The translations under genes were made by a program, and so were the position numbers. From a virus: 64,000 nucleotides of DNA. Where the stretch lies: positions 1-64,000 of IMG/VR virus record IMGVR_UViG_3300017706_000970; one strand, given 5' to 3'. This document shows positions 560 through 50,139 of this stretch, piece after piece (position 1 is the stretch's first letter; the number at the start of each line of letters is the position of its first letter). A model generated the notes under the pieces. It saw only the letters and a list, made by a program, of their open reading frames with translations, ran no database searches and was not told the DNA's origin.

Positions 560-769
560 ATGAACTGTCTCGAATGTGAAAATGAAATTGCTCCTGCACG
601 ACTTGAAGCAATTCCCGATACTGAATATTGTGTTGATTGTGTAGACAAGAACTCAACTCCTACTATTGCTCGTGTGATCTATAGTCACAAGTGCGACAGT
701 GAACTCTTTATCGCAAAGGGTAAGGAGAATGTTCGTCGTCTTGACCGAGAATGGGCCAGGGCAAGATGA
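560..769 (+). CDS. DksA/TraR-like C4 zinc-finger protein
   Basis: A 69-residue protein with CLEC near the N-terminus (Cys3, Cys6) and CVDC (about Cys24, Cys27). The four-cysteine spacing resembles the zinc finger of the DksA/TraR family, whose members bind the RNA polymerase secondary channel. The coiled-coil arm of full-length DksA is missing, so this would be a short TraR-type version. An unrelated zinc ribbon is possible. The stop codon overlaps the next start as ATGA (766-769), so the two genes are translationally coupled. Confidence 0.55.
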   Translation: MNCLECENEIAPARLEAIPDTEYCVDCVDKNSTPTIARVIYSHKCDSELFIAKGKENVRRLDREWARAR

Positions 770-1638
770 TCAAAGCCATTTTACCAATTCTGTTTACTAC
801 GGCTGTCTTTGCACAAGAAGTTTGTCCTCCTCGTTACAATAGTTTTGATTGTGACAAGTGGGAAAAAGTAGAAGATAAAATTTGGTACAGGTCATGTACA
901 AGTGAAGTCTTAACCGACGAAGGCGAACTTAAATTCAGCACGACACTGGAGACTTGGAAGGATAAATCCAATCCAGATTTCATCGACGTTGAGGGTATTC
1001 TTACTGTTAAATACCACCAATATGGATGGGCATATTACAACTATGTCCACCGAAGTCAGATGTGTCCATTCCCTTTGACTCAGGTCAGGGGGAATATTTA
1101 TTGGGACTGGGATACTGCCTATGAATGGTACGGACAAAACTCAACAGACGAAGAGTGGGATTTGTACCAAGAAGCGAATGTAAATTTTGGTGATATGCAA
1201 TGGGCCACTAAGAACGGATTCGGTCAGAGTGGAGATTTGTATTTTGGTTGTAGAAAGAAGTATGGTCTAGTTTACAGTGGACCGAACCCAACATTCTCAG
1301 TACGGGACATTGAATTTGACGATAGATTGTGGAGGTATCGTTTTCCGGAAGAAGAGAATGCTATTATTGATTTAGAACCACCACTATCGTTTGATCCCGA
1401 TGATTCGGACAAGAATAATTTTGCGATGAACTTGCGAATTCGCATGAGTGGTAAGCATGTAATCAAAGCAGTAAACGGCGTGATGCTAGATGACGAGAAC
1501 ACAATTCAAATTCCAAACGTAGTACGAATTCGATTCCGTGCTAGGTTTGAAATAATGGATCCTGAGTATTGCCCTGATCAACCAGAACCGCCGGCTCCAG
1601 TGTATGGTGATTCTTCATCTGATGAGATTGCACCATAA
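766..1638 (+). CDS. Secreted protein of unknown function
   Basis: The ATG at 766 is chosen because it overlaps the upstream stop as ATGA and opens directly with a signal peptide (MIKAILPILFTTAVFA, predicted cleavage before Gln17). An ATG at 751 would add five residues before the signal. The mature protein begins QEVCPPR, is rich in Tyr and Trp with scattered Cys, and ends in an acidic, Pro-rich tail. The same CPPR motif follows the signal peptide of the dockerin protein at 3044, so the two may share an N-terminal module. It probably acts in the host periplasm or outside the cell. Function unknown. Confidence 0.7.
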   Translation: MIKAILPILFTTAVFAQEVCPPRYNSFDCDKWEKVEDKIWYRSCTSEVLTDEGELKFSTTLETWKDKSNPDFIDVEGILTVKYHQYGWAYYNYVHRSQMCPFPLTQVRGNIYWDWDTAYEWYGQNSTDEEWDLYQEANVNFGDMQWATKNGFGQSGDLYFGCRKKYGLVYSGPNPTFSVRDIEFDDRLWRYRFPEEENAIIDLEPPLSFDPDDSDKNNFAMNLRIRMSGKHVIKAVNGVMLDDENTIQIPNVVRIRFRARFEIMDPEYCPDQPEPPAPVYGDSSSDEIAP

Positions 1639-1690: not shown

Positions 1691-2785
1691 ATGAGACTAC
1701 AGTATACTTACGTCGAGAGCGACTGCTACGAATATGATCCTGAACCAACCTACATCGGTGGTGCGCCTCCGATTCGAACCGAGGGTATTCCCGTTGGTTG
1801 GAAGAAGGGTTCTTTTGCCGAACAAGACGGACTAGATCTTTCCTCTTTCAATGTTCGCAATCGCCGATACAACAATAAAGCAGGTAATAACAACCTAAGC
1901 GATATCAACAACTGGAACAGTGGTTACTGGGCAACAGTTTTGATTACACCCAAGCACGCAATTGGTTGCCGTCATTATTGGAGAACTGTTCCTGCACAAG
2001 AACGCAAGCAGCGTTTCATGGGGAAGAGTGGTAAGATCTACTATCCTGAGTGGGAATCAACTACCGAGTTTAATGGTGATCGTATTATCATTACATTCAA
2101 AGAAGAACTACCCGAAGATGTCACGCCAATCGAAGGATGTGATATCGGTTATGTACCAGTCGGTAGCAAGATTTATCAGTTGACGAATCAGGGTATGCTT
2201 CACTACATGTACACTAAGGGTGGTAAGGTTATCACTTACGGCGGCCGCCCCCCTCGTGTCTATGACTTTGAATATGAAGTTGACGACATCATGGGTGAAC
2301 GCCAAGCAATATGGAGTGGAGACTCTGGTACACCCACATTCGTCAAGGACGAACAGAACGACAAACTATACTGGCTTGGAAACAAGTGGGGTGGTTTCCC
2401 TATGTCACAAGACAGTGAATCCGCACAAGAGATTATAGATTTCGTCAAGGGTGCAACCAGCGATAAGCGTCCTACTGGTTACGACTGGAAAGTCGCCCGA
2501 CTTAGTGGTGGAGGAATGGATTACAACAATGATGGTGTAATCGACTCTGCTGATCTCGGACATGTTCTTGCTGCCTTTGGTATGAAGGGAGCAGGTTACT
2601 ATGAACAATTCGATCTCAACGATGACGGTAGAATTGATTCAGGAGACATGGGACAGATTTTTGCTAAGTGGGGCGTAACTGCCGAAATGGTAACTTACGA
2701 TCCAGATAATCCCCCACCACCAGTACAAGAAAGAAAACCTGCAAATCCAAACAAGGATGAATGGGGGTTCGGCGCGTCCGACTAA
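1691..2785 (+). CDS. Trypsin-like serine protease with C-terminal dockerin repeats
   Basis: A 364-residue protein. ATG at 1691 is chosen because GGAG at 1681-1684 is well placed; ATG at 1679 is too close to it. A chymotrypsin-like layout is visible: a candidate catalytic His95 in CRHYW after VLITPKH, candidate Asp130 in NGDRIII, and Ser212 in WSGDSGTPTF, the classic GDSG nucleophile site. Residues 277-328 form two calcium-binding EF-hand-like dockerin repeats (DYNNDGVIDSADL and DLNDDGRIDSGDM), each followed by a hydrophobic helix ending in FG or WG. The tail is Pro-rich. No signal peptide is seen, so it may be a virion protein or be released at lysis. Type I dockerins normally bind cohesins, and this two-repeat style is common in planctomycete extracellular proteins. 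Substrate and partner are unknown. Confidence 0.7.
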   Translation: MRLQYTYVESDCYEYDPEPTYIGGAPPIRTEGIPVGWKKGSFAEQDGLDLSSFNVRNRRYNNKAGNNNLSDINNWNSGYWATVLITPKHAIGCRHYWRTVPAQERKQRFMGKSGKIYYPEWESTTEFNGDRIIITFKEELPEDVTPIEGCDIGYVPVGSKIYQLTNQGMLHYMYTKGGKVITYGGRPPRVYDFEYEVDDIMGERQAIWSGDSGTPTFVKDEQNDKLYWLGNKWGGFPMSQDSESAQEIIDFVKGATSDKRPTGYDWKVARLSGGGMDYNNDGVIDSADLGHVLAAFGMKGAGYYEQFDLNDDGRIDSGDMGQIFAKWGVTAEMVTYDPDNPPPPVQERKPANPNKDEWGFGASD

Positions 2786-2788
2786 ATA
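2781..2788 (+). promoter_or_regulatory. T4-type late promoter motif (ACTAAATA)
   Basis: The octamer overlaps the end of the protease gene and lies 27 bases before the next start, with a good ribosome site (AAGGAG) in between. It would drive the holin-like and dockerin genes late. Confidence 0.5.
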
Positions 2789-2814
2789 TAAAGGCAAAGA
2801 ATAAGGAGAATATT

Positions 2815-3105
2815 ATGCCTACAGTAACGACAACTACAGAGCCCAAACCGGGAGTGAAGTCCACCGAGTTTTGGGCAGCATTAACCATTGGAGGGCTTCC
2901 GTTAATTGAACAACTCGGTTGGTTCAAGAATTGGCCTACTACCGAGGGTGGTGAAATTGCAATGTGGTCAATCGCAGGTGCAGTTGTTTGCTCGTACATT
3001 TGGAGTCGAGCATGGGTAAAGGTAAGAGGGAAAGGAGAATTTGATGAGATTAAAACTATTAACAGCAACGCTACTTCTAGCAAGTCCGGCAGTCGCACAG
3101 GATGA
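2815..3105 (+). CDS. Small membrane protein, holin candidate
   Basis: ATG at 2815 follows AAGGAGAATATT; a longer in-frame start at 2761 lies inside the upstream gene and is rejected. The product has 96 residues. It has a Thr/Pro-rich start, two hydrophobic segments at about 18-36 and 47-66 (the second starting near EIAMWSIAGAVVC), then a basic, Ser-rich tail. Size, topology and a late-type promoter are compatible with a holin. The KPGVKSTEFW entry is a motif I associate with small phage membrane proteins. No endolysin lies next to it, so holin is only a suggestion. Confidence 0.55.
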   Translation: MPTVTTTTEPKPGVKSTEFWAALTIGGLPLIEQLGWFKNWPTTEGGEIAMWSIAGAVVCSYIWSRAWVKVRGKGEFDEIKTINSNATSSKSGSRTG

Positions 3106-3838
3106 ATTGGTATGTCCACCAAGACTGATTCCAATGATGTCTGTCAGTCTACCAGACGACACCGGTAAAATCATTACCGTGTCCGAAGTAGAAAACGACA
3201 CTAGAAAAATTGTCGCGGATTACGAAACACTTGATCGAGGAACGATCGGTGCATTTCCTATGGATGGGAGTATTGATTGGACAAACAATTCGGCAGAAAG
3301 AAGAAGGTTAAAGTATCGTCAGTCTATTCTGGTTGACGAGGGTATCATGCCTATTATTCCTCCGGGATTTGATGAGGTATGTTGGGAACCTTCTACTCGA
3401 AGACTGATTACAGTTTACGAACAAGTTCTAGAACCCGGCGAAAGTTTAACAACGCCAATTTTCTGGGAAATCACAACACGACTGGAAGGTCAAATTGCAG
3501 ATGTTAACGGCGATGGTTGGGTTGATGCTCAGGATCAAGGATTGGTCTTGGGAGCATTTGGAACTGATAATCCTCTGTACGATCTCAATCAAGATGGTAT
3601 TGTCGATGGTGCAGATCTCGCAATCGTCTTGAGTCAGTGGTCTGAGTCCTTCGATGATGTTATCGAAGCAAACGCTGGAGGCGGAGGTGGTCCAATTGAT
3701 CCACCAGTTGAAATCGTTTACAACGAAGATTGGAAAGGGGCAAATGAAATTTTTGCTCTAACTCTAAATGAAGTTCCCAACGACAATACTCGGGAAGGAC
3801 ACTTCATAATCCCAAAAGCGATTTGGCGGTTGACCTGA
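3044..3838 (+). CDS. Secreted dockerin-containing protein (zero-frame product)
   Basis: ATG at 3044 follows AAAGGAG with 6-nt spacing, inside the end of the membrane-protein gene. The 264-residue product has a signal peptide (LKLLTATLLLASPAVA, cleavage near residue 19), then DELVCPPR, like the secreted protein at 766. Residues 153-200 are a dockerin with two EF-hand-like loops (DVNGDGWVDAQD and DLNQDGIVDGAD), followed by a Gly-rich linker. The zero frame ends a few codons after a perfect slippery heptamer. The -1 frame then stays open for 137 codons, so the main product may be a 395-residue fusion. Cellular role unknown; likely extracytoplasmic. Confidence 0.7.
   Translation: MRLKLLTATLLLASPAVAQDELVCPPRLIPMMSVSLPDDTGKIITVSEVENDTRKIVADYETLDRGTIGAFPMDGSIDWTNNSAERRRLKYRQSILVDEGIMPIIPPGFDEVCWEPSTRRLITVYEQVLEPGESLTTPIFWEITTRLEGQIADVNGDGWVDAQDQGLVLGAFGTDNPLYDLNQDGIVDGADLAIVLSQWSESFDDVIEANAGGGGGPIDPPVEIVYNEDWKGANEIFALTLNEVPNDNTREGHFIIPKAIWRLT
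3811..3817 (+). promoter_or_regulatory. Candidate -1 frameshift site, C CCA AAA
   Basis: Read in the dockerin gene's frame this is atC CCA AAA, a perfect X XXY YYZ heptamer followed by G. A -1 slip reads CCC AAA AGC GAT and enters the open frame to 4230. A perfect 8-bp hairpin (CGGTGTCG, CAGA loop, CGACACCG) lies at 3852-3871, farther downstream than usual for a frameshift stimulator. A homopolymer sequencing error would look the same. Confidence 0.45.
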
Positions 3839-4230
3839 TTCGAGGATCATTCGGTGTCGCAGACGACACCGGATCCGGTGGACCAGCCGCCATCTCAGCA
3901 TCGACTTACGGGTATCAGTCAGTTAATTTAGATCATGATACAATGTCAGTAGATGAGTGGGTTGCAGCAAATCCAGATGCAGTTTGGATTGTTGAAATGT
4001 ACAGAGATGGTGAATTGATAGGAACGGTTGCAACAGATTCCTCGAACGTAAGTGGAAGGGATCAAGTACAACCAGCAGATGGATCCAGACAATACGGAAC
4101 TGGAATCTGGTGGTCAGCATTGGTTCCTCCTTCGGAATTTGAAGTAGGTGATAAGTGGATAGTGTATGGGTGGGCAAGCCCGGCAGAACAGGCTTTCTTG
4201 CCACCGTATCCGCCTGATAGATTCTATTGA
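3817..4230 (+). CDS. -1 frame continuation of the secreted dockerin protein
   Basis: This open frame of 137 codons has no ATG near its beginning and no ribosome-binding site. The only early initiator is a TTG at 3823. It is entered naturally by a -1 slip at 3811-3817, which gives ...FIIPK-SDLAVDLIRGS... without a break. The segment looks like a compact beta-rich domain (ANPDAVWIVEMYRDGELIG; GDKWIVYGWAS) and would be the C-terminal domain of a 395-residue secreted protein. Alternatives are an independent gene starting at TTG, or one gene split by an indel. It ends 24 bases before a strong terminator. Confidence 0.55.
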   Translation, partial: SDLAVDLIRGSFGVADDTGSGGPAAISASTYGYQSVNLDHDTMSVDEWVAANPDAVWIVEMYRDGELIGTVATDSSNVSGRDQVQPADGSRQYGTGIWWSALVPPSEFEVGDKWIVYGWASPAEQAFLPPYPPDRFY

Positions 4231-4826: not shown

Positions 4827-4898
4827 GGCCCTGTCGTCTAGTGGTTAGGACACGAGATTTTCACTCTCGTAACCGGAGTTCAATTCTCCGCAGGGTCA
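4827..4898 (+). tRNA. tRNA-Glu (anticodon TTC)
   Basis: Acceptor GGCCCTG pairs with CAGGGTC (one G-U). The anticodon stem CGAGA/TCTCG encloses TTTTCAC, giving anticodon TTC. The T arm CGGAG/CTCCG has a TTCAATT loop. No CCA is encoded after the discriminator base. Confidence 0.95.
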
Positions 4899-4903
4899 TT
4901 CTT

Positions 4904-4976
4904 GGGAACGTAGCCCAACGGCAGAGGCAACGGACTTAAAATCCGTACAGTGCGGGTTCGAATCCCGCCGTTCCTA
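4904..4976 (+). tRNA. tRNA-Leu (anticodon TAA) with a short variable loop
   Basis: Acceptor GGGAACG/CGTTCCT, anticodon stem ACGGA/TCCGT around CTTAAAA (anticodon TAA, reads UUA), T arm GCGGG/CCCGC with TTCGAAT. The variable loop is only ACAGT, whereas bacterial tRNA-Leu normally has a long variable arm. No CCA is encoded. Confidence 0.88.
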
Positions 4977-4990
4977 TTACGAGTAAAACG

Positions 4991-5143
4991 ATGAACAACA
5001 TCAAAAAGAAAATCTCAACGCGAGATAAGAATTGGAACCGAGATGATACGGGGCGTCCCGTAACTCGTTCAACTACATGGGGTGCTAAGGATAGATGCCC
5101 CAAGAAGAACCGCCGTGATTGGCGGAAGGAGAATCACAGATGA
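4991..5143 (+). CDS. Small basic protein of unknown function
   Basis: 50 residues, highly charged (KKKISTRDKNWNRDD at the start; CPKKNRRDWRKENHR at the end), with one Cys. Such composition suggests a nucleic-acid or ribosome-binding peptide, without proof. The stop TGA overlaps the ATG of the next gene (ATGA at 5140-5143), and an AAGGAG just before serves the downstream start. No family is recognised. Confidence 0.5.
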   Translation: MNNIKKKISTRDKNWNRDDTGRPVTRSTTWGAKDRCPKKNRRDWRKENHR

Positions 5144-5454
5144 GTGGATTCGCAATTAAGAGAGAGCTTCTTGAAGAGCTCGAGTATCGTAGTGGTGAGA
5201 ATGGTCTTACTACTTGGTGGGACACGAGGGATCACGGAAGGTTCGTGATTACGTCGCTTCGGTATCACGACGAAGATACCGGCGTGACTAGTGTTCATCG
5301 ATCCGTGAAGGATCTTGAAGGAAATCTTTCCATCAACAACTACCACAATCTCGCCGGTTCGCGGCCTTTCATGGCCACCGAGCGAGATCACCAGCGTCTG
5401 CTTACGCAGATGATCCGTGAGTGGGAATCTGGAGAAATCAATCATGGCGAATGA
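5140..5454 (+). CDS. Hypothetical early protein
   Basis: The start ATG at 5140 is supported by GGAAGGAG upstream and the ATGA overlap; the product has 104 residues. It looks like a soluble mixed alpha/beta protein with a helical, acidic N-terminal part (IKRELLEELEYRSGE), a central strand region (GRFVITSLRYHDEDTG) and a C-terminal helix (HQRLLTQMIREWESGE). It overlaps the next gene by 11 bases. No family is recognised. Confidence 0.65.
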   Translation: MSGFAIKRELLEELEYRSGENGLTTWWDTRDHGRFVITSLRYHDEDTGVTSVHRSVKDLEGNLSINNYHNLAGSRPFMATERDHQRLLTQMIREWESGEINHGE

Positions 5455-6025
5455 AGTCACCAACAACGTCACCATTACTTTCAACTCTGGCCCTGCCGGA
5501 GAAAAGGCTGCCAAGGTGTTTGAATATATCAACGAAAACGATTCGTTGCTGACTCCAGAATTGTATCCAAACAAGCCGGAAGATAATGAAATCTGCCGAA
5601 CGTGGATGGAACAGAACCTTGGTGGAAAGTGGGCTCGCAATGAAGAGGCTGAGATCTCTCGGTCTGATGATGGCAACTACCATGACGCCCACATCAATAT
5701 CGGCACCGCTTGGTCGCCGTGTACGCCTTGGGTCGAACGACTCGTCGAGTATCTTGTCGATGGTTTCACCATCACCCATACATACGTTGACGAGTGCCTG
5801 AATTTTGTTGGGTCGAACGTATGGGAAGACGGCGAATTGATTTACGACTTTGACAGCGAGGATTTCTATTCCACGCTCGAAGAGGAAAGTAAGGTTCGCG
5901 CTAAGAGTGCCGGTATGGTACTTGAAGACATGTCCGACGAAGACATCGACGAATGGCGATGGGATTGGATGTGGGATTTTGTTTACGACACCGTGGAACC
6001 ACCCGAAGAGGTATACTCCCAATGA
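5444..6025 (+). CDS. YubB/Api92-like ferredoxin-fold protein (DUF1281-type)
   Basis: ATG at 5444 follows GGAGAAATCAATC; the product has 193 residues. The middle resembles the DUF1281/YubB ferredoxin-like family of phage and plasmid proteins: an early NNVTITF strand, then NLGGKWARNEE and, later, NIGTAWSPCTPWVERLVEYL. These match that family's typical G-KW and T-WSPP features, followed by a YVDECLNFVGS strand where members often have YxEpGmxFaG. The C-terminal 50 residues are acidic and Trp-rich (DEWRWDWMWDF). The biochemical role of the family is unknown. It is coupled to the next gene by an ATGA overlap. Confidence 0.6.
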   Translation: MANEVTNNVTITFNSGPAGEKAAKVFEYINENDSLLTPELYPNKPEDNEICRTWMEQNLGGKWARNEEAEISRSDDGNYHDAHINIGTAWSPCTPWVERLVEYLVDGFTITHTYVDECLNFVGSNVWEDGELIYDFDSEDFYSTLEEESKVRAKSAGMVLEDMSDEDIDEWRWDWMWDFVYDTVEPPEEVYSQ

Positions 6026-6279
6026 GCCAGTATAGATTGCATATTGACATTCCGCTTGGAACCAGTGAACCCGAAGCCGTGCGTATTGCACAGCATATGA
6101 TCTCGAGCATTGCTACGCATGTTCAGCTTCGATCGAAGATCGATGAAGTGGTTAATGGTATGAACTATCGTCTCGGTCATGATGATGATCGACAGAAGTC
6201 GAATTACCTGATGGTAGATGACGAAGGACATGTAAATAATAAGAAATGTCGCTTGACATTCAACTCAGAGAAGGTATAA
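6022..6279 (+). CDS. Hypothetical small protein
   Basis: 85 residues from ATG at 6022, overlapping the upstream TGA. It begins with a beta strand (YRLHIDIPLG) followed by a long helix (EPEAVRIAQHMISSIATHV) and a polar C-terminal half (GHDDDRQKSNYLMVDDEGHV). A strong sigma70 promoter is embedded in its last codons (6253-6280), so the next gene is expressed separately. No family is recognised. Confidence 0.6.
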   Translation: MSQYRLHIDIPLGTSEPEAVRIAQHMISSIATHVQLRSKIDEVVNGMNYRLGHDDDRQKSNYLMVDDEGHVNNKKCRLTFNSEKV

Positions 6280-6280
6280 T
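6253..6280 (+). promoter_or_regulatory. Sigma70-type promoter inside the end of a gene
   Basis: TTGACA (6253-6258), 16-bp spacer, TATAAT (6275-6280). The next ATG (6287) is only six bases past the -10 box, so transcription would begin about at the start codon. It also drives the Ile tRNA. Confidence 0.85.
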
Positions 6281-6286
6281 ATAAAC

Positions 6287-6520
6287 ATGAAGAACGCAAG
6301 AATTCAAAAGTTCCGCAACATTGCGGTAAATCAAACCCGACTTCCGTTTGTCCTTTTCATTGTCAGCACGTTGCTGACGATCACTTGCCTGCTGAATCTG
6401 ATTCAGCTGGGAAGGGTAGAGGACACTATTCGCCCTGATGTAAGTGTAAACGATCTCCTGTATCTCTTCGGATACTTCGTATCGTCCTGCTTCTTCTGGC
6501 GATGGACGTTCCACAACTGA
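6287..6520 (+). CDS. Small two-helix membrane protein, possibly leaderless
   Basis: 77 residues: a basic N-terminus (MKNARIQKFR), a hydrophobic helix at about 20-41 (PFVLFIVSTLLTITCLLNLI), a short polar loop and a second helix at about 56-73 (LLYLFGYFVSSCFFW). ATG at 6287 coincides with the expected start point of the promoter at 6253-6280. A weak AGAAGG lies 12 bases upstream and would only be present on read-through mRNA. Located directly before the Ile tRNA. No family is recognised. Confidence 0.65.
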   Translation: MKNARIQKFRNIAVNQTRLPFVLFIVSTLLTITCLLNLIQLGRVEDTIRPDVSVNDLLYLFGYFVSSCFFWRWTFHN

Positions 6521-6525
6521 ATCAA

Positions 6526-6599
6526 GGGCCGTGGGAGGAATGGTTTTTCTCAGTCCGACTTATAATCGGGTAAACGTGGTTCGAATCCACGACGGCCTA
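6526..6599 (+). tRNA. tRNA-Ile (anticodon TAT)
   Basis: Acceptor GGGCCGT/ACGGCCT, anticodon stem TCCGA/TCGGG around CTTATAA (anticodon TAT, reads AUA), T arm CGTGG/CCACG with TTCGAAT. The D stem is short (GAG/CTC) and position 8 is G instead of the usual T. No encoded CCA. Confidence 0.78.
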
Positions 6600-6612
6600 T
6601 TTGGAGTATATA

Positions 6613-6975
6613 ATGAATCGTAGACTTAGAATCTATATTGCGGGAGCCATGAGTGGCCACCCGAATCTGAATTGGGATGCCTTCGACCGGAAGGAAAAGC
6701 AATTGGAATCAGACGGATGGGATGTAGTGAATCCTGCTGCTATGGACAGAGACGCGGGTATTGATCCCACCGATCTAGGCATGTATGACTACGAAGAAGC
6801 AGCAAGTCGTGATATCGATGCACTTCGTTCATGTGACGCCATCTACATGATGGCAGGGTTCCAGTTTAGCAAGGGTGCTTGCTGGGAACGGGCTCTTGCT
6901 CGGGATATGGGCCTTCAGCGTTACTATGAGATTCCGCGTGAAGACCACGAACGACCGAAGGATTTTGGAAAATGA
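6613..6975 (+). CDS. DUF4406 protein (nucleoside deoxyribosyltransferase-like fold)
   Basis: ATG at 6613 follows TTGGAGTATATA; the product has 120 residues. The sequence IYIAGAMSG (residues 7-15), then NPAAMDRD, a helix with ASRDIDALRSCDAIYMM and GFQFSKGACWERALAR, match the DUF4406 family. This family has the fold of nucleoside 2-deoxyribosyltransferases, and its conserved acidic residues and final Glu helix are recognisable here (E before RALA). Many phages carry it; a role in nucleotide or NAD-type metabolism is assumed but unproven. Confidence 0.8.
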   Translation: MNRRLRIYIAGAMSGHPNLNWDAFDRKEKQLESDGWDVVNPAAMDRDAGIDPTDLGMYDYEEAASRDIDALRSCDAIYMMAGFQFSKGACWERALARDMGLQRYYEIPREDHERPKDFGK

Positions 6976-6987
6976 TGATTAAGTGGC

Positions 6988-7015
6988 TTGACATCCTTGT
7001 AATATTAAGTATAAT
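6988..7015 (+). promoter_or_regulatory. Sigma70-type promoter
   Basis: TTGACA (6988-6993), 16-bp spacer, TATAAT (7010-7015). It lies just after the DUF4406 gene and drives the Lys tRNA transcript. Confidence 0.88.
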
Positions 7016-7021
7016 GTATTA

Positions 7022-7134
7022 ACTATATGGGTGAGGCCACCACACAAACTGGTCCTCGACTCGCGGAGACAGCGAGGTGAAGAATGAAGTTTTGGGGTAT
7101 CTCGCTTCTTCACTACTACAACCCCACGAATTAT
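7022..7134 (+). other. Leader region before tRNA-Lys with two hairpins
   Basis: This 113-nt untranslated-looking stretch between promoter and tRNA contains two inverted repeats: CCTCG/CGAGG (7054-7077) and TGGGGT/ACCCCA (7093-7126). A 17-codon frame from ATG 7027 ends at 7080, but nothing supports its translation. It is probably a tRNA 5' leader removed by processing. Confidence 0.3.
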
Positions 7135-7207
7135 GCCGCCTTAGCTCAGTTGGTAGAGCTGGTGACTTTTAATCACTAGGTCGGGGGTTCGAGTCCCTCA
7201 GGCGGTA
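7135..7207 (+). tRNA. tRNA-Lys (anticodon TTT)
   Basis: Acceptor GCCGCCT/AGGCGGT (one G-U), anticodon stem with GGTGA/TCACT around CTTTTAA (anticodon TTT), T arm with GGTTCGAGTCC. No CCA is encoded. Confidence 0.95.
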
Positions 7208-7228
7208 CTTGGTTTAGAAAAGGTTTTT

Positions 7229-7429
7229 ATGAACACTCAAGAACAACTACGATTCGATGTCTTCTCCGCCGCACAAATGCGTTGCGATCAGAAGTACAAC
7301 TACGAATTTACGATGTACGAGAACGCTCTTAACAATGGGGAAACTCACACGGCTCCCGTGTACCCTTCGATCGAAGAGATTCTCGACGACGCAAAAACAA
7401 TTTACGATTTTGTTAACAATAAGGGTTGA
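7229..7429 (+). CDS. Hypothetical small acidic protein
   Basis: 66 residues from ATG 7229, 22 bases after the Lys tRNA and preceded by AAAAGG. It looks like an all-helical soluble protein (QEQLRFDVFSAAQMR; SIEEILDDAKTIYDFVNN). It shares the tRNA-Lys transcript. The next promoter begins inside its last codons. No family is recognised. Confidence 0.55.
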   Translation: MNTQEQLRFDVFSAAQMRCDQKYNYEFTMYENALNNGETHTAPVYPSIEEILDDAKTIYDFVNNKG

Positions 7430-7454
7430 CAAACCCTTCAAGATAAAGTATAAT
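7426..7454 (+). promoter_or_regulatory. Sigma70-type promoter
   Basis: TTGACA (7426-7431), 17-bp spacer, TATAAT (7449-7454). It overlaps the stop codon of the upstream gene and drives the winged-helix gene at 7535 with a leader of about 75 nt. Confidence 0.9.
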
Positions 7455-7534
7455 ACTTTAAACAACGGTGACTTCGATACTCGGGTCGAATAAAACACCA
7501 ACACTAGTACCGAGAATTTTTGGAGATGTTTGCC

Positions 7535-7780
7535 ATGAGCAACACCAACACCCAGTCCCAGACTCGCCGCGTTCTTAACTACCTCACCTCGGGACGAGGC
7601 CTCACTTCTGCCGAAGCACGTAGCCGATTCGGCGTTCAGAACATGCGGGCAGTGATGACCCGCGTCCGTCAGCTCACCGAGCGATACGGTAACTGGCGAG
7701 TCACCACGAGCGAGACCGCATCCGGTAGCACCCGCTACATGATCAAGAAGGTCATCCTCGTCGATCCGGTTTCAGCCTGA
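7535..7780 (+). CDS. Winged helix-turn-helix DNA-binding protein
   Basis: ATG at 7535 is preferred: GGAG at 7522-7525 is well spaced for it, while ATG 7526 touches the GGAG. The 81-residue protein has QTRRVLNYLTSGRGLTSAEA, followed by a recognition-helix-like RFGVQNMRAVMTRVRQLTER, then a wing (GNWRVTTSETASGSTRYMIKK). This is the typical short phage wHTH of the type seen in actinophages and marine phages. It probably acts as an early regulator. It is the last gene before the structured non-coding stretch. Confidence 0.7.
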   Translation: MSNTNTQSQTRRVLNYLTSGRGLTSAEARSRFGVQNMRAVMTRVRQLTERYGNWRVTTSETASGSTRYMIKKVILVDPVSA

Positions 7781-7798
7781 TCACCCCCTTGCTTGTGC

Positions 7799-7816
7799 GG
7801 GGGGCGAAAGCCCCCC
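7799..7816 (+). terminator. GNRA-capped GC hairpin (terminator-like)
   Basis: GGGGGGC, a GAAA loop and GCCCCCC form a perfect very stable hairpin right after the wHTH gene. The expected T run is missing (AAACAACTTTT follows), so it could be an atypical terminator or the first helix of a structured RNA. Confidence 0.55.
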
Positions 7817-7829
7817 AAACAACTTTTAC

Positions 7830-8190
7830 AACTGAATAGAATAATGTGCGGGAGACTAATTACCTCCTGTACGGGACTCGCATAATAATCTCCCACGAAT
7901 GGGGATAGTGCAACCTCCAAATGGTTTAGCGACCTGTCCGTATGATGCAGAAATGCTTGTATGAGATGATCCTTAGCGGGATGGGTGGAGGAGTTGAAGC
8001 AGGTTACTACCGACATTGTACGTTCGTGCTGCTTCTTTCAGGTATACAATAACCCTGAGTCCCATTTTGATATACCTCGTTCGTGAGATCTCGATGTACA
8101 AGTTCCGAGATGGTTGCGTGACGGTTCGACTCTCCAGTCTTTTTTAGAGATTGAGTCGAAGGAGTCGGGTGGGGAATCCGACCCACGAAC
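7830..8190 (+). ncRNA. Gene-free stretch with many inverted repeats; candidate structured RNA
   Basis: No convincing gene lies on either strand in these 360 bases. The sequence holds a series of perfect inverted repeats: GGGAGA/TCTCCC (7850-7894), GAAGCAG/CTGCTTC (7996-8035), GGTATA/TATACC (8041-8076), ATCTCG/CGAGAT (8088-8111), TTCGACTC/GAGTCGAA (8125-8160) and GTCGG/CCGAC near 8165-8181. It lies between a wHTH gene and tRNA-Gly and is probably co-transcribed with the tRNA. Signatures of tmRNA or RNase P RNA were not recognised. It may be a novel phage RNA, a long processed leader, or remnants of tRNA genes. Confidence 0.4.
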
Positions 8191-8195
8191 GATTA

Positions 8196-8267
8196 GCGGG
8201 AGTCGTATAACGGCCATTACCCAAGGTTTCCAACCTTGAGATGAGAGTTCGATTCTCTCCTCCCGCT
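8196..8267 (+). tRNA. tRNA-Gly (anticodon TCC)
   Basis: Acceptor GCGGGAG/CTCCCGC, anticodon stem CAAGG/CCTTG around TTTCCAA (anticodon TCC), T arm GAGAG/CTCTC with TTCGATT. No CCA is encoded. Confidence 0.93.
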
Positions 8268-8295
8268 TTTGCTTACATGTTTAGGAGAATAAATC

Positions 8296-8469
8296 ATGAG
8301 TAAGTTTTTTGAGAATGTTTCCAAGGCCTTTTACCTGATGGCCCTTATGTCGATCGTTTTTTCGATCTACGTTTACCAGAACGATTCGACGCTAGGAATC
8401 TTCATCGGTCTTTGGGTTCCTACCCTTCTACTGCTCGGTCCTTCCTGCCCTTGGTTTAGATCAGAATGA
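8296..8469 (+). CDS. Small two-helix membrane protein
   Basis: 57 residues from ATG 8296, preceded by TTAGGAGAATAAATC. Two hydrophobic helices lie at about 11-27 (AFYLMALMSIVFSIYVY) and 33-50 (LGIFIGLWVPTLLLLG), with a short polar loop between them and a CPWFRSE tail. Its stop overlaps the next ATG (ATGA at 8466-8469). No family is recognised. Confidence 0.65.
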   Translation: MSKFFENVSKAFYLMALMSIVFSIYVYQNDSTLGIFIGLWVPTLLLLGPSCPWFRSE

Positions 8470-8597
8470 GTAGGCAACACAGCGCGGGGAAGGGAGACTC
8501 TCCCCGTAAAGTGGACCAACAGAAGTACCGCGAGAACTACGAAAAGATCTTCGGTAAGAAAAAAAATCAGAGTGTGAAAAAGAAGAAGAAGACTTGA
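8466..8597 (+). CDS. Small conserved phage protein (GKGD-PR-VD-KY-NYEKIFG type)
   Basis: 43 residues. The motif HSAGKGDSPRKVDQQKYREN, followed by YEKIFG, resembles a small protein I know from many marine phages, including cyanophages, and from some bacteria. Its function is unknown. The C-terminus is a run of lysines (VKKKKKT). It is translationally coupled to the upstream membrane-protein gene, and its last codons form the left arm of a terminator-like hairpin that overlaps the next promoter. Confidence 0.7.
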   Translation: MSRQHSAGKGDSPRKVDQQKYRENYEKIFGKKKNQSVKKKKKT

Positions 8598-8612
8598 CTC
8601 TTCTTCTTTTTT
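8579..8612 (+). terminator. Terminator-like hairpin overlapping a promoter
   Basis: A 14-bp stem pairs 8579-8592 with 8599-8612 (AAGAAGAAGA-type arm against TCTTCTTCTTTTTT) around a six-base loop, and the right arm ends in T6. The loop and first stem base contain the -35 box of the promoter at 8594, so one short segment could end one transcript and begin the next. Confidence 0.6.
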
Positions 8613-8621
8613 GTGTATAAT
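8594..8621 (+). promoter_or_regulatory. Sigma70-type promoter
   Basis: TTGACT (8594-8599), 16-bp spacer, TATAAT (8616-8621), followed by AAAGGAG and ATG at 8642. It drives the small basic gene and probably tRNA-Arg. Confidence 0.82.
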
Positions 8622-8641
8622 AACTACAAAGGAGTCAACAC

Positions 8642-8755
8642 ATGGCTAAGAGAATTCTAACCGCAACGCAGCAGGCGCAGATGACCAAGCGAGGAAAGAC
8701 GAAGAAGCACAAGAAGAACAAGCACGGTACGACTGGTAGAGGCAGGAAGAACTGA
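8642..8755 (+). CDS. Small, extremely basic protein
   Basis: 37 residues from ATG 8642 with a good AAAGGAG. About 40 percent of residues are Lys, Arg or His (KRGKTKKHKKNKHGTTGRGRKN), resembling the tails of ribosomal or nucleoid proteins. It has its own strong early promoter, so it may be made in quantity soon after infection; RNA or DNA binding is likely. No family is recognised. Confidence 0.55.
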   Translation: MAKRILTATQQAQMTKRGKTKKHKKNKHGTTGRGRKN

Positions 8756-8817
8756 CAACCGGCATTTACTATCAACAAGTCCTTGCCAGATAAGGACTTA
8801 CGGCAGTCTTGCCCATT

Positions 8818-8891
8818 GCTCCCGTAGCTCAGTTGGATAGAGCAGCTGACTTCTAATCAGCAGGTCACACGTTCGAGTCGTGTCGGGAGTG
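8818..8891 (+). tRNA. tRNA-Arg (anticodon TCT)
   Basis: Acceptor GCTCCCG/CGGGAGT (one G-U), anticodon stem GCTGA/TCAGC around CTTCTAA (anticodon TCT, reads AGA), T arm with CGTTCGAGTCG. No CCA is encoded. Confidence 0.94.
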
Positions 8892-8895
8892 CTTA

Positions 8896-8903
8896 CCTAA
8901 ATA
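8896..8903 (+). promoter_or_regulatory. T4-type late promoter motif (CCTAAATA)
   Basis: The octamer lies 36 bases before the ATG at 8939, directly after tRNA-Arg, with an AAGGAG ribosome site in between. Spacing is similar to the late motifs before structural genes. Confidence 0.5.
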
Positions 8904-8938
8904 GAATGGTCGAATTCTTTTCACATAAGGAGATAAAC

Positions 8939-9079
8939 ATGTTTGAAGATATTACCACATCAGAGGTTCTTGGAACCGTATTTTACACTATCGTCGTTTT
9001 CGTCGCCGGTGCCGTCGTTGGTCCTAAGTTCTTTGGCTTCCTTAATGGATTAATGCCTTGGAACAAGTCGGGCGAGTGA
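8939..9079 (+). CDS. Small single-pass membrane protein
   Basis: 46 residues from ATG 8939 after AAGGAGATAAAC. One hydrophobic segment at about 9-27 (EVLGTVFYTIVVFVAGAVVG) is followed by a Phe/Gly-rich amphipathic end. It is flanked by tRNA genes and preceded by a late-type promoter motif. No family is recognised. Confidence 0.6.
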   Translation: MFEDITTSEVLGTVFYTIVVFVAGAVVGPKFFGFLNGLMPWNKSGE

Positions 9080-9090
9080 TATGAGTGTCC

Positions 9091-9163
9091 GCCACCGTAG
9101 CTCAGTTGGCAGAGCAGAGCTTTTGTAAAGCTCAGGTCGCAGGTTCGAGTCCTGTTGGTGGCT
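9091..9163 (+). tRNA. tRNA-Thr (anticodon TGT)
   Basis: Acceptor GCCACCG/TGGTGGC, anticodon stem GAGCT/AGCTC around TTTGTAA (anticodon TGT), T arm with GGTTCGAGTCC. No CCA is encoded. Confidence 0.94.
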
Positions 9164-9182
9164 ATTCGGAGGGCAGTGTTCT

Positions 9183-9255
<73 letters not shown>

Positions 9256-9258
9256 TTT

Positions 9259-9332
9259 CGGGGTGTAGCGCAGCTTGGTAGCGCGGCTGGTTTGGGACCA
9301 GCAGGTCGCAGGTTCAAATCCTGTCACCCCGA
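9259..9332 (+). tRNA. tRNA-Pro (anticodon TGG)
   Basis: Perfect acceptor CGGGGTG/CACCCCG, anticodon stem GCTGG/CCAGC around TTTGGGA (anticodon TGG), T arm GCAGG/CCTGT with TTCAAAT. The acceptor begins with C, as is usual for bacterial tRNA-Pro. No CCA is encoded. Confidence 0.95.
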
Positions 9333-9339
9333 TTAGATT

Positions 9340-49647: not shown

Positions 49648-50139
49648 ATGTCACATGTTAACAAAATTATCGAAGGGTTAATCGAAGAAAACCCATCAGA
49701 AGTAAAGCAAGCTATCGAGGATACTCTCATGAGTAAACTTGCCGATAGGCTCGAGATTGCAAGAGAAGAAATCGCCTCTGCTATTCTCGACGAGAAGAAG
49801 AAAGAAGACAAAGAAGATGAACTTGAGAAGGAACTCGATGACGATGAAACCGGCGAGTCTTTCCCAGTAAAAGATGAAGAAGAAGAAGAAATAGATGACG
49901 AGGATGAGGACGAAGAAGTAAAGCCAAAAAAGAAAGTTAAAGAAGGTTCATATATGCCTGGCCGGGGCAAAGCAAAAGACGCAAAACACTCTACCATGGC
50001 CAAAGACTACAAAGAAAGTGCATTAGATGCAGTTGGTGGAGAAGACGACGATGTTAACAACGATGGTAAGGTAAATTCCTCGGACTCTTATCTCAAGAAC
50101 CGAAGAAAAACAATCGCCAACAAGATGAAGTCCCGCTGA
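49648..50139 (+). CDS. Prohead core protein with an EF-hand-like end
   Basis: 163 residues. The helical start ([37 protein letters not shown]) and very acidic middle ([16 protein letters not shown]) fit the small prohead core proteins (gp67/gp68-type) next to gp21 in T4-like phages. Near the C-terminus, [20 protein letters not shown] is a calcium-loop motif of the same DxNxDGxxxxxD style as the dockerins at the other end of the window; similar ends occur in cyanophage relatives. It is expected to be cleaved by gp21 during head maturation. Confidence 0.72.

What the first reader, a model, noticed from the sequence alone, without database searches (positions are those of the whole stretch)
1691..3838. 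Dockerin modules in a T4-type phage, one fused to a trypsin-like protease
Two nearby genes carry two-loop type I dockerins with hydrophobic helices ending FG/WG. One is attached to a protease with a GDSG site, the other to a signal peptide. Dockerins bind cohesins in cellulosomes and in extracellular complexes of planctomycetes. A phage that carries them under late promoters, next to a holin-like gene, might anchor a protease to host surface cohesins or reuse the modules for calcium-dependent virion assembly. I know of no described phage system of this type.
Basis: partly seen in the sequence, partly recalled or inferred. Interest (0 to 1): 0.8.

Follow-up and report, generated by a model that had tools for sequence, protein, structure and literature searches.

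The report
Phage dockerin proteins, one ribosome-frameshifted
A T4-like marine phage, probably infecting planctomycete bacteria, carries two late genes with bacterial docking modules (dockerins), one joined to a protease-like domain and the other apparently made in a short and a long form by a conserved ribosomal frameshift; related phages put the same modules on their virion tail parts, which suggests a calcium-dependent way of gripping the host that has not been described in phages.

Summary
The dockerins are real. P0002 (3044-3838) passes Pfam Dockerin_1. P0001 (1691-2785) is below that cut-off, but its homologue in L007 passes it, and in a PDB profile search known dockerins outrank calmodulins. 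A model of the P0002 family matches a solved dockerin at 1.4 A. The record is T4-type. The protease call rests on an invariant His-Asp-GDSG pattern; no profile or confident model supports it.

An invariant slippery site CCCAAAA (3811-3817), with an upstream Shine-Dalgarno-like element, a 6-nt spacer and an invariant stem, leads into a -1 frame under protein-level selection in nine distinct contigs. Four other phages encode the same long protein in one frame. Several others encode only the short one.

In L007's phage, which has both genes, the baseplate wedge also carries a dockerin. Other T4-type phages have dockerins in a tail tube and, with over twenty calcium loops, in a baseplate wedge. 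The nearest cellular dockerins are planctomycetal.

Best reading: phages reuse a host-type docking module on virion and exported proteins. Binding to host cohesins is inferred, because no cohesin was found in the phages.

The parts
766..1638 (+). P0004: Sec-signal-bearing secreted protein beginning ...AQEVCPPR, the same start motif as P0002; neighbour, not a dockerin
   Evidence: sequence; near-identical homologue next to the frameshift gene in L018
1640..1646 (+). CTAAATA late-promoter-like element before the protease gene
   Evidence: same motif before tail sheath and other structural genes; 16 on + strand, 2 on - strand
1691..2785 (+). P0001: serine-protease-like domain with C-terminal dockerin, 364 aa; candidate triad H95 (1973-1975), D151 (2141-2143), S212 (2324-2326)
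2516..2680 (+). dockerin of P0001 (residues 276-330)
   Evidence: PF00404 16.2 bits, EF-hand_6 E 3.4e-6; profile against PDB dockerin 2y3n_B E 7.7e-7
2782..2788 (+). CTAAATA late-promoter-like element before the small membrane gene and P0002
2815..3105 (+). small membrane protein (96 aa), conserved next to the secreted dockerin gene; 'holin-like' unproven
   Evidence: conserved neighbour in L004, L006, L008, L009, L018, L020; no Pfam or PHROG hit
3044..3838 (+). P0002, 0-frame product: signal peptide, beta domain, dockerin, start of C-terminal domain; 264 aa
3044..3097 (+). predicted Sec signal peptide MRLKLLTATLLLASPAVA (by eye)
   Evidence: sequence; same pattern in all relatives
3491..3652 (+). 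dockerin of P0002
   Evidence: PF00404 E 5.5e-5; modelled homologue superposes on dockerin 2y3n_B, rmsd 1.4 A, TM 0.79 by target length
3795..3799 (+). Shine-Dalgarno-like AAGGA, 11 nt before the slippery site
   Evidence: AAGG/AGGA/GGAGG at this place in all nine sequences
3811..3817 (+). slippery heptamer C CCA AAA for -1 frameshifting
   Evidence: invariant in nine sequences; only in-frame CCCAAAA in the 89-kb record
3824..3832 (+). 5' arm of frameshift stem, 6 nt after the heptamer
   Evidence: 100% paired in nine sequences
3854..3869 (+). inner hairpin of the frameshift element
   Evidence: one UA to AU double change keeps pairing
3884..3892 (+). 3' arm of frameshift stem (contains GCCGCC)
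3817..4230 (+). -1 frame extension (137 codons): rest of the C-terminal beta domain; predicted long product 395 aa
   Evidence: dN/dS about 0.15-0.2 where dS is not saturated; homologous to the C-terminus of natural in-frame fusions

Best explanation
A clade of T4-type marine phages, most likely infecting dockerin-rich planctomycetes of the Phycisphaerae kind, uses host-type dockerins as calcium-dependent docking tags on virion and exported proteins. In this window a late gene joins a serine-protease-like domain to a dockerin. A second gene makes a Sec-exported protein (beta domain, then dockerin). During its translation a fraction of ribosomes slips -1 at CCCAAAA and adds a second beta domain, so short and long dockerin proteins come from one gene in a fixed ratio. 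The dockerins would hold the protease and the C-terminal domain at cohesin-type modules on the host surface, helping adsorption, local proteolysis of the surface layer, or release. Shown by computation: dockerin identity, conservation of the frameshift signals and of the -1 frame, natural short and fused forms, dockerins on virion proteins of relatives. Inferred: the host, cohesin binding, protease activity, timing, and the two products themselves.
For: Dockerin profiles and structure. Frameshift: CCCAAAA, 6-nt spacer, TGGCGGTTG/GCCGCC stem and upstream SD-like element in nine distinct sequences. The heptamer's CCA and AAA are codon-invariant, whereas only 8 of 59 amino-acid-invariant columns of the 0 frame are; of the 8 codon-invariant columns in the -1 frame, four lie in the stem arms. 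It is the only in-frame CCCAAAA in the record and the only gene-end heptamer with a long -1 extension (137 codons). In a scan of 2.9 million viral contigs the heptamer-plus-stem pattern found this cassette in 11 of 14 matches, the other 3 being chance. The long form is one reading frame in L007, L028, L029 and L030; the short form stands alone in L012, L128, L138, L140 and others. The modelled C-terminal domain has its first strand in the 0-frame part and the rest in the -1 part. Virion dockerins: baseplate wedge in L007's own phage, wedge with over twenty loops in L135, tail tube in L155. Planctomycete affinity; 48 of 298 class genomes have cohesins. The hypothetical 'planctosome', peptidases held by cohesin-dockerin contacts on Phycisphaerae, was proposed in PMC6461901.
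Against: No cohesin in the window's record or 16 related viral records, and no named host receptor. Only 1 of 12 genomes with the closest dockerins has a Pfam cohesin. Host evidence is indirect: no convincing T4-type gp23 in 298 genomes of the class, and no cellular homologue of the protease, N-terminal or C-terminal domain. No protease profile hit, and AlphaFold of P0001 failed (pLDDT 31). P0001 has no signal peptide, so it must leave by lysis or on the virion. The frameshift stem has little covariation because it is nearly invariant.
Confidence: 0.55

Rival explanations
1. The dockerins are calcium-stabilised structural or assembly modules within the phage particle and its accessory proteins, and bind no host cohesin.
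For: Dockerins in baseplate wedge and tail tube proteins; tandem arrays of loops in L135; a Pfam cohesin in only 1 of 12 selected planctomycete genomes and none in the phages.
Against: Closest relatives are planctomycete dockerins; the module also sits on a Sec-exported protein and on an enzyme-like domain; it is present or absent between homologues (window wedge and tube have none), as expected of a docking accessory rather than a structural need.
Confidence: 0.22
2. The protein after 3838 is a separate gene started by coupled re-initiation at the NTG codon at 3823, not a frameshift product.
For: All nine sequences have ATG, GTG or TTG at this place, overlapping the 0-frame stop.
Against: The SD-like element is 23 nt from this codon but 11 nt from the heptamer; an invariant in-frame heptamer and stem are not explained; a re-initiated protein would lack the signal peptide and the first strand of its domain, while homologues carry the whole as one exported chain.
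Confidence: 0.08
3. The phage supplies a protease and a binding protein that join the host's own extracellular peptidase complex during infection, as an auxiliary metabolic aid, with no role in adsorption or lysis.
For: A peptidase complex held by cohesin-dockerin contacts has been proposed for freshwater Phycisphaerae (PMC6461901); P0002 is exported; a separate trypsin-like lipoprotein is encoded in L018.
Against: P0001 has no signal peptide; late-promoter-like motifs precede both genes; dockerins also occur on virion proteins.
Confidence: 0.12
4. The frame break is a sequencing or assembly error, or a decaying gene.
For: Frame breaks are common artefacts in metagenome contigs (general knowledge).
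Against: The same break, site and stem occur in nine distinct contigs, several with near-saturated synonymous divergence, and the -1 frame is under purifying selection.
Confidence: 0.01
5. The modules are ordinary EF hands, not dockerins.
For: P0001 scores better on EF-hand_6 than on Dockerin_1.
Against: Profile search ranks dockerins above calmodulins; homologues pass the dockerin cut-off; modelled module matches a solved dockerin at 1.4 A.
Confidence: 0.03

Closest known systems
Type I dockerins of cellulosomes (PF00404)
   Same: Two DxNxDGxxDxxD loops each followed by one helix, F/W-G endings, joined to enzymes and binding domains; modelled fold matches 2y3n_B
   Different: Carried by phage virion and phage-exported proteins, with no scaffoldin or cohesin in the phage
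'Planctosome' of Nemodlikiaceae, Phycisphaerae (hypothetical model, PMC6461901)
   Same: Peptidases with dockerins held by cohesins at the cell surface; same bacterial group as the closest dockerins
   Different: Phage-encoded serine-protease-like domain instead of M12B/M14 peptidases; no anchor or adaptor in the phage
Ig-like domains added to phage capsid and tail proteins, by -1 or +1 frameshift or in frame (Fraser et al. 2006; reviewed in PMC5009743)
   Same: A C-terminal beta domain supplied to a fraction of copies by frameshift in some phages and in frame in others
   Different: Host protein is a Sec-exported dockerin protein, not a capsid or tail subunit; Ig fold of the domain not established
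E. coli dnaX and phage tail-assembly-chaperone -1 frameshifting
   Same: Heptamer, 3' stem-loop and (dnaX) 5' Shine-Dalgarno stimulator
   Different: Different gene, CCCAAAA heptamer, long product unrelated to tau or gpGT
Trypsin-like serine proteases (clan PA)
   Same: Order H-D-S, GDSG, 'LITPKHAIGCRH' resembling 'LISPTHVLTAAH' of the real trypsin-like protein in L018
   Different: No significant profile match; AAHC-type box replaced by GCRH

Membership tests
Type I dockerin | curated profile score | tested here: met
   P0002 23.7 of 22.9 bits; P0001 itself 16.2 (below), homologues 28.9 and 23.7
Type I dockerin | two calcium loops each with a single following helix | tested here: met
   loops invariant in alignment; helices 156-164 and 183-191 and rmsd 1.4 A to 2y3n_B in the modelled L029 homologue
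Type I dockerin | calcium-dependent binding to a cohesin | not testable with these tools
   no cohesin in the phage records
Trypsin-like serine protease (clan PA) | His-Asp-Ser triad in order, GDSG | tested here: met
   H95, D151, G210-G213 invariant down to 28-29% identity
Trypsin-like serine protease (clan PA) | profile match or double beta-barrel fold | tested here: inconclusive
   no Pfam, NCBIfam or PDB profile hit; model pLDDT 31; hhalign to L018 trypsin only 15 residues
Programmed -1 ribosomal frameshift | X XXY YYZ heptamer in the 0 frame, conserved | tested here: met
   C CCA AAA invariant in nine sequences
Programmed -1 ribosomal frameshift | 3' structure at 5-9 nt spacing and 5' SD in bacteria | tested here: met
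   6-nt spacer, stem 100% paired, z -2.8 to -4.6 in five sequences; SD-like element
Programmed -1 ribosomal frameshift | both products made | not testable with these tools
   natural short and fused homologues only
Cellulosome or planctosome | cohesin-bearing scaffold in the same genome | tested here: not met
   no PF00963 in the phage records; records may be incomplete
Phage Ig-like domain | immunoglobulin fold | tested here: inconclusive
   beta domain at pLDDT about 70, no clear structural match
T4-type phage | gp23, sheath, baseplate, tube homologues | tested here: met
Holin | profile match | tested here: inconclusive
   no hit for 2815-3105

The most novel reading that the evidence does not exclude
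A group of T4-type phages has built a docking system parallel to the cellulosome: host-type dockerins on baseplate wedge, tail tube, a protease and a frameshift-tuned exported protein let virions and enzymes grip cohesin complexes on planctomycete surfaces, which would then serve as phage receptors.
Probability: 0.35. Interest if true: 0.9.

Novelty: new variant of a known kind. Interest (0 to 1): 0.74.

Why it matters
Cohesin-dockerin contacts are among the tightest natural protein contacts and are known from polymer-degrading bacteria, not from phage adsorption. If phages use them, the host's surface complex becomes a receptor, and the abundant planctomycete dockerins and cohesins gain a role in phage-host conflict. 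The frameshift adds a conserved, compact example outside tail chaperones and capsid proteins and shows why a gene call that stops at 3838 is incomplete. Both claims can be tested with ordinary reporters and binding assays.

Tried and rejected
tblastn of P0001, P0002, the fused L029 protein and a dockerin against 50,697 phage records: nothing, except one weak dockerin match in an unannotated faecal phage. Genome contigs with the protease alignment: nothing. AlphaFold of P0001 from six close sequences failed. Candidate host protease-dockerin genes found through the class search proved unrelated, sharing only dockerins. N- and C-terminal domains of P0002 have no homologue in 248 class genomes. 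The N-terminal domains of the L144-L152 secreted dockerin proteins look cohesin-like by eye but have no Pfam or PDB support, so I do not claim a phage cohesin. The N-terminal beta domain of P0002 gave only weak beta-sandwich matches, none a cohesin. Three of 14 pattern matches for the frameshift motif were chance and were dropped. L006 and L029 extensions look like beta-helices by eye but have no profile hit and no convincing mutual similarity. A sequencing error was considered and rejected.

Full report
What was checked. The window is the first 64 kb of an 88,995-bp linear IMG/VR record. The two genes of the finding are P0001 (ATG 1691 to 2785, 364 aa) and P0002 (ATG 3044 to 3838, 264 aa). 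The record is T4-type: its gp23 is 56% identical to Phage C48C1 and about 54% to cyanophage and pelagiphage gp23, and it encodes tail sheath, baseplate wedge and tail tube proteins. P0001 and P0002 hit no PHROG, and no record among 50,697 phage genomes encodes a relative.

Dockerins. P0002 passes the Pfam Dockerin_1 cut-off and also hits NCBIfam's GC-type dockerin, below that family's cut-off. P0001 alone is below the Pfam cut-off (16.2 bits) and looks like an EF hand, but its homologues in L007 and L129 pass (28.9 and 23.7 bits). A profile of the family finds cellulosomal dockerins before calmodulins in the PDB (2y3n_B E 7.7e-7). AlphaFold of the fused relative L029 (pLDDT 72) gives a two-helix module that matches dockerin 2y3n_B over 52 columns at 1.4 A and TM 0.79.

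The protease. No profile recognises the first 270 residues of P0001, and AlphaFold with six close sequences gave pLDDT 31. A distant homologue, L129 (28% identity, E 3e-42), keeps H95, D151 and S-G-D-S-G around S212, in the order and context of a trypsin-like triad. The segment LITPKHAIGCRH resembles LISPTHVLTAAH of a genuine trypsin-like protein that lies next to the dockerin cassette in L018. I treat it as a probable but unproven serine protease. In L006 the same protein continues in frame into a further 700 residues of no known family.

The frameshift. P0002's relatives L004, L006, L008, L009, L018, L020, L023 and L025 end at the same place as P0002, and in each the -1 frame continues for roughly 130 to 142 codons. 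The heptamer C CCA AAA is in the 0 frame and invariant in all nine distinct sequences. Six nucleotides later begins TGGCGGTTG, which pairs with an equally invariant GCCGCC arm. AAGG, AGGA or GGAGG lies about 11 nt upstream. The outer stem is paired in every sequence, with three wobble-keeping changes; the inner hairpin has one UA/AU double change. In five sequences single-strand folding is 2.8 to 4.6 standard deviations better than shuffles. The -1 frame is under protein-level selection, with dN/dS near 0.15-0.2 where dS is not saturated. In the 0 frame 8 of 59 amino-acid-invariant columns are codon-invariant, and both codons of the heptamer are among them. In the -1 frame 8 of 48 are, four of them in the stem arms. 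In the whole record this is the only in-frame CCCAAAA, and the only slippery site at a gene end with a long -1 extension (137 codons). In 2.9 million viral contigs the heptamer-plus-stem pattern matched 14 stretches, 11 of them this cassette.

Natural forms on both sides. L007, L028, L029 and L030 carry the complete protein in one frame. L012, L128, L133, L138, L139, L140 and L143 stop right after the dockerin. The frameshift form therefore makes from one gene what other phages make as one form or the other. The first strand of the C-terminal beta domain lies in the 0-frame part, so only the frameshift product restores the domain; re-initiation at the NTG codon would not. Phage Ig-like domains show the same pattern of frameshift or in-frame attachment on capsid and tail proteins (review PMC5009743). 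Whether this domain is Ig-like is not settled.

Surroundings. CTAAATA, the motif before the sheath and other structural genes, lies before both the protease gene and the small membrane gene. The small membrane gene (2815-3105) accompanies the secreted dockerin gene in most relatives, but no profile calls it a holin. P0002 has a signal peptide by eye and two conserved cysteines, as expected for an exported protein; P0001 has none.

Dockerins on virions. A dockerin scan of IMG/VR found 48 loci. In L007's own phage, which holds both genes of this finding, the baseplate wedge protein carries a dockerin. L135 encodes a baseplate wedge (PF23786 E 4.6e-12; PHROG wedge E 7e-52) with more than twenty dockerin loops (PF00404 E 2e-98). 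L155, whose gp23 is 60.5% identical to the window's, encodes a tail tube protein with a dockerin-like loop. The window's own wedge and tube showed no dockerin in the scan of the whole record. The modules thus come and go on virion, enzyme and exported proteins of one phage group.

Host. The best 30 cellular relatives of these dockerins are all in planctomycete genomes. 261 of 298 genomes of the Phycisphaerales locus's class have Dockerin_1 and 48 have Cohesin. A cohesin-dockerin peptidase complex, the hypothetical planctosome, has been proposed for Phycisphaerae (PMC6461901). No convincing gp23 of this type was found in those genomes (two weak 26% matches only), so the host remains an inference.

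Mechanism and confidence. Dockerin identity (about 0.95) and programmed frameshifting (about 0.9) are well supported by sequence. Planctomycete host (about 0.75), protease activity (about 0.65) and docking to host cohesins (about 0.5) are inferences. The main rival is a purely structural, calcium-stabilised use. I found no paper in the held library that describes phage dockerins on virions or a frameshifted dockerin protein. Paper PMC5967307 mentions only a structural resemblance of part of an E. coli phage protein to a cellulosomal carbohydrate-binding module.

Noticed in passing
L135 1274-7720 (IMGVR_UViG_3300032302_000043): T4-type baseplate wedge protein of 2148 aa with more than twenty dockerin calcium loops in tandem.
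   Followed up: partly
L155 2970-3821 and 3890-5185 (IMGVR_UViG_3300025771_000694): Tail tube protein with an N-terminal dockerin-like loop, followed by a 431-aa protein of no known family with another, next to gp23.
   Followed up: partly
L182 322-2811 (IMGVR_UViG_3300021197_001481, 27.8-33.8 kb): Baseplate wedge with a C-terminal dockerin in the same phage that holds the protease-dockerin and fused secreted dockerin genes.
   Followed up: yes
L144, L146, L147, L150, L152: Sec-exported phage proteins with a C-terminal dockerin and an N-terminal domain that looks cohesin-like by eye but matches no profile.
   Followed up: partly
L029 1524-3428: 634-aa dockerin protein with a beta-helix-like C-terminal region (by eye) just before the fused secreted dockerin gene.
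   Followed up: partly
L129 3164-6801: Distant protease-dockerin followed by an 817-aa protein that also ends in a dockerin.
   Followed up: partly
L018 414-1178 (-): Phage-encoded trypsin-like lipoprotein (PF13365 E 9.7e-15) near the dockerin cassette.
   Followed up: partly
window 766-1638: Secreted protein with the same AQ-x-CPPR start as P0002 but no dockerin; function unknown.
   Followed up: no
window 49648-50139: Acidic small protein before the prohead-protease-like gene with one dockerin-like calcium loop (PF00404 16.8 bits, below cut-off).
   Followed up: no
record positions 68.6-81.4 kb (L013, L014): Long run of glycosyltransferase, epimerase and heptose-kinase-like genes (by eye), as if the phage remodels surface sugars.
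   Followed up: no
window 4827-9333: Nine tRNA genes directly downstream of the dockerin cassette.
   Followed up: no
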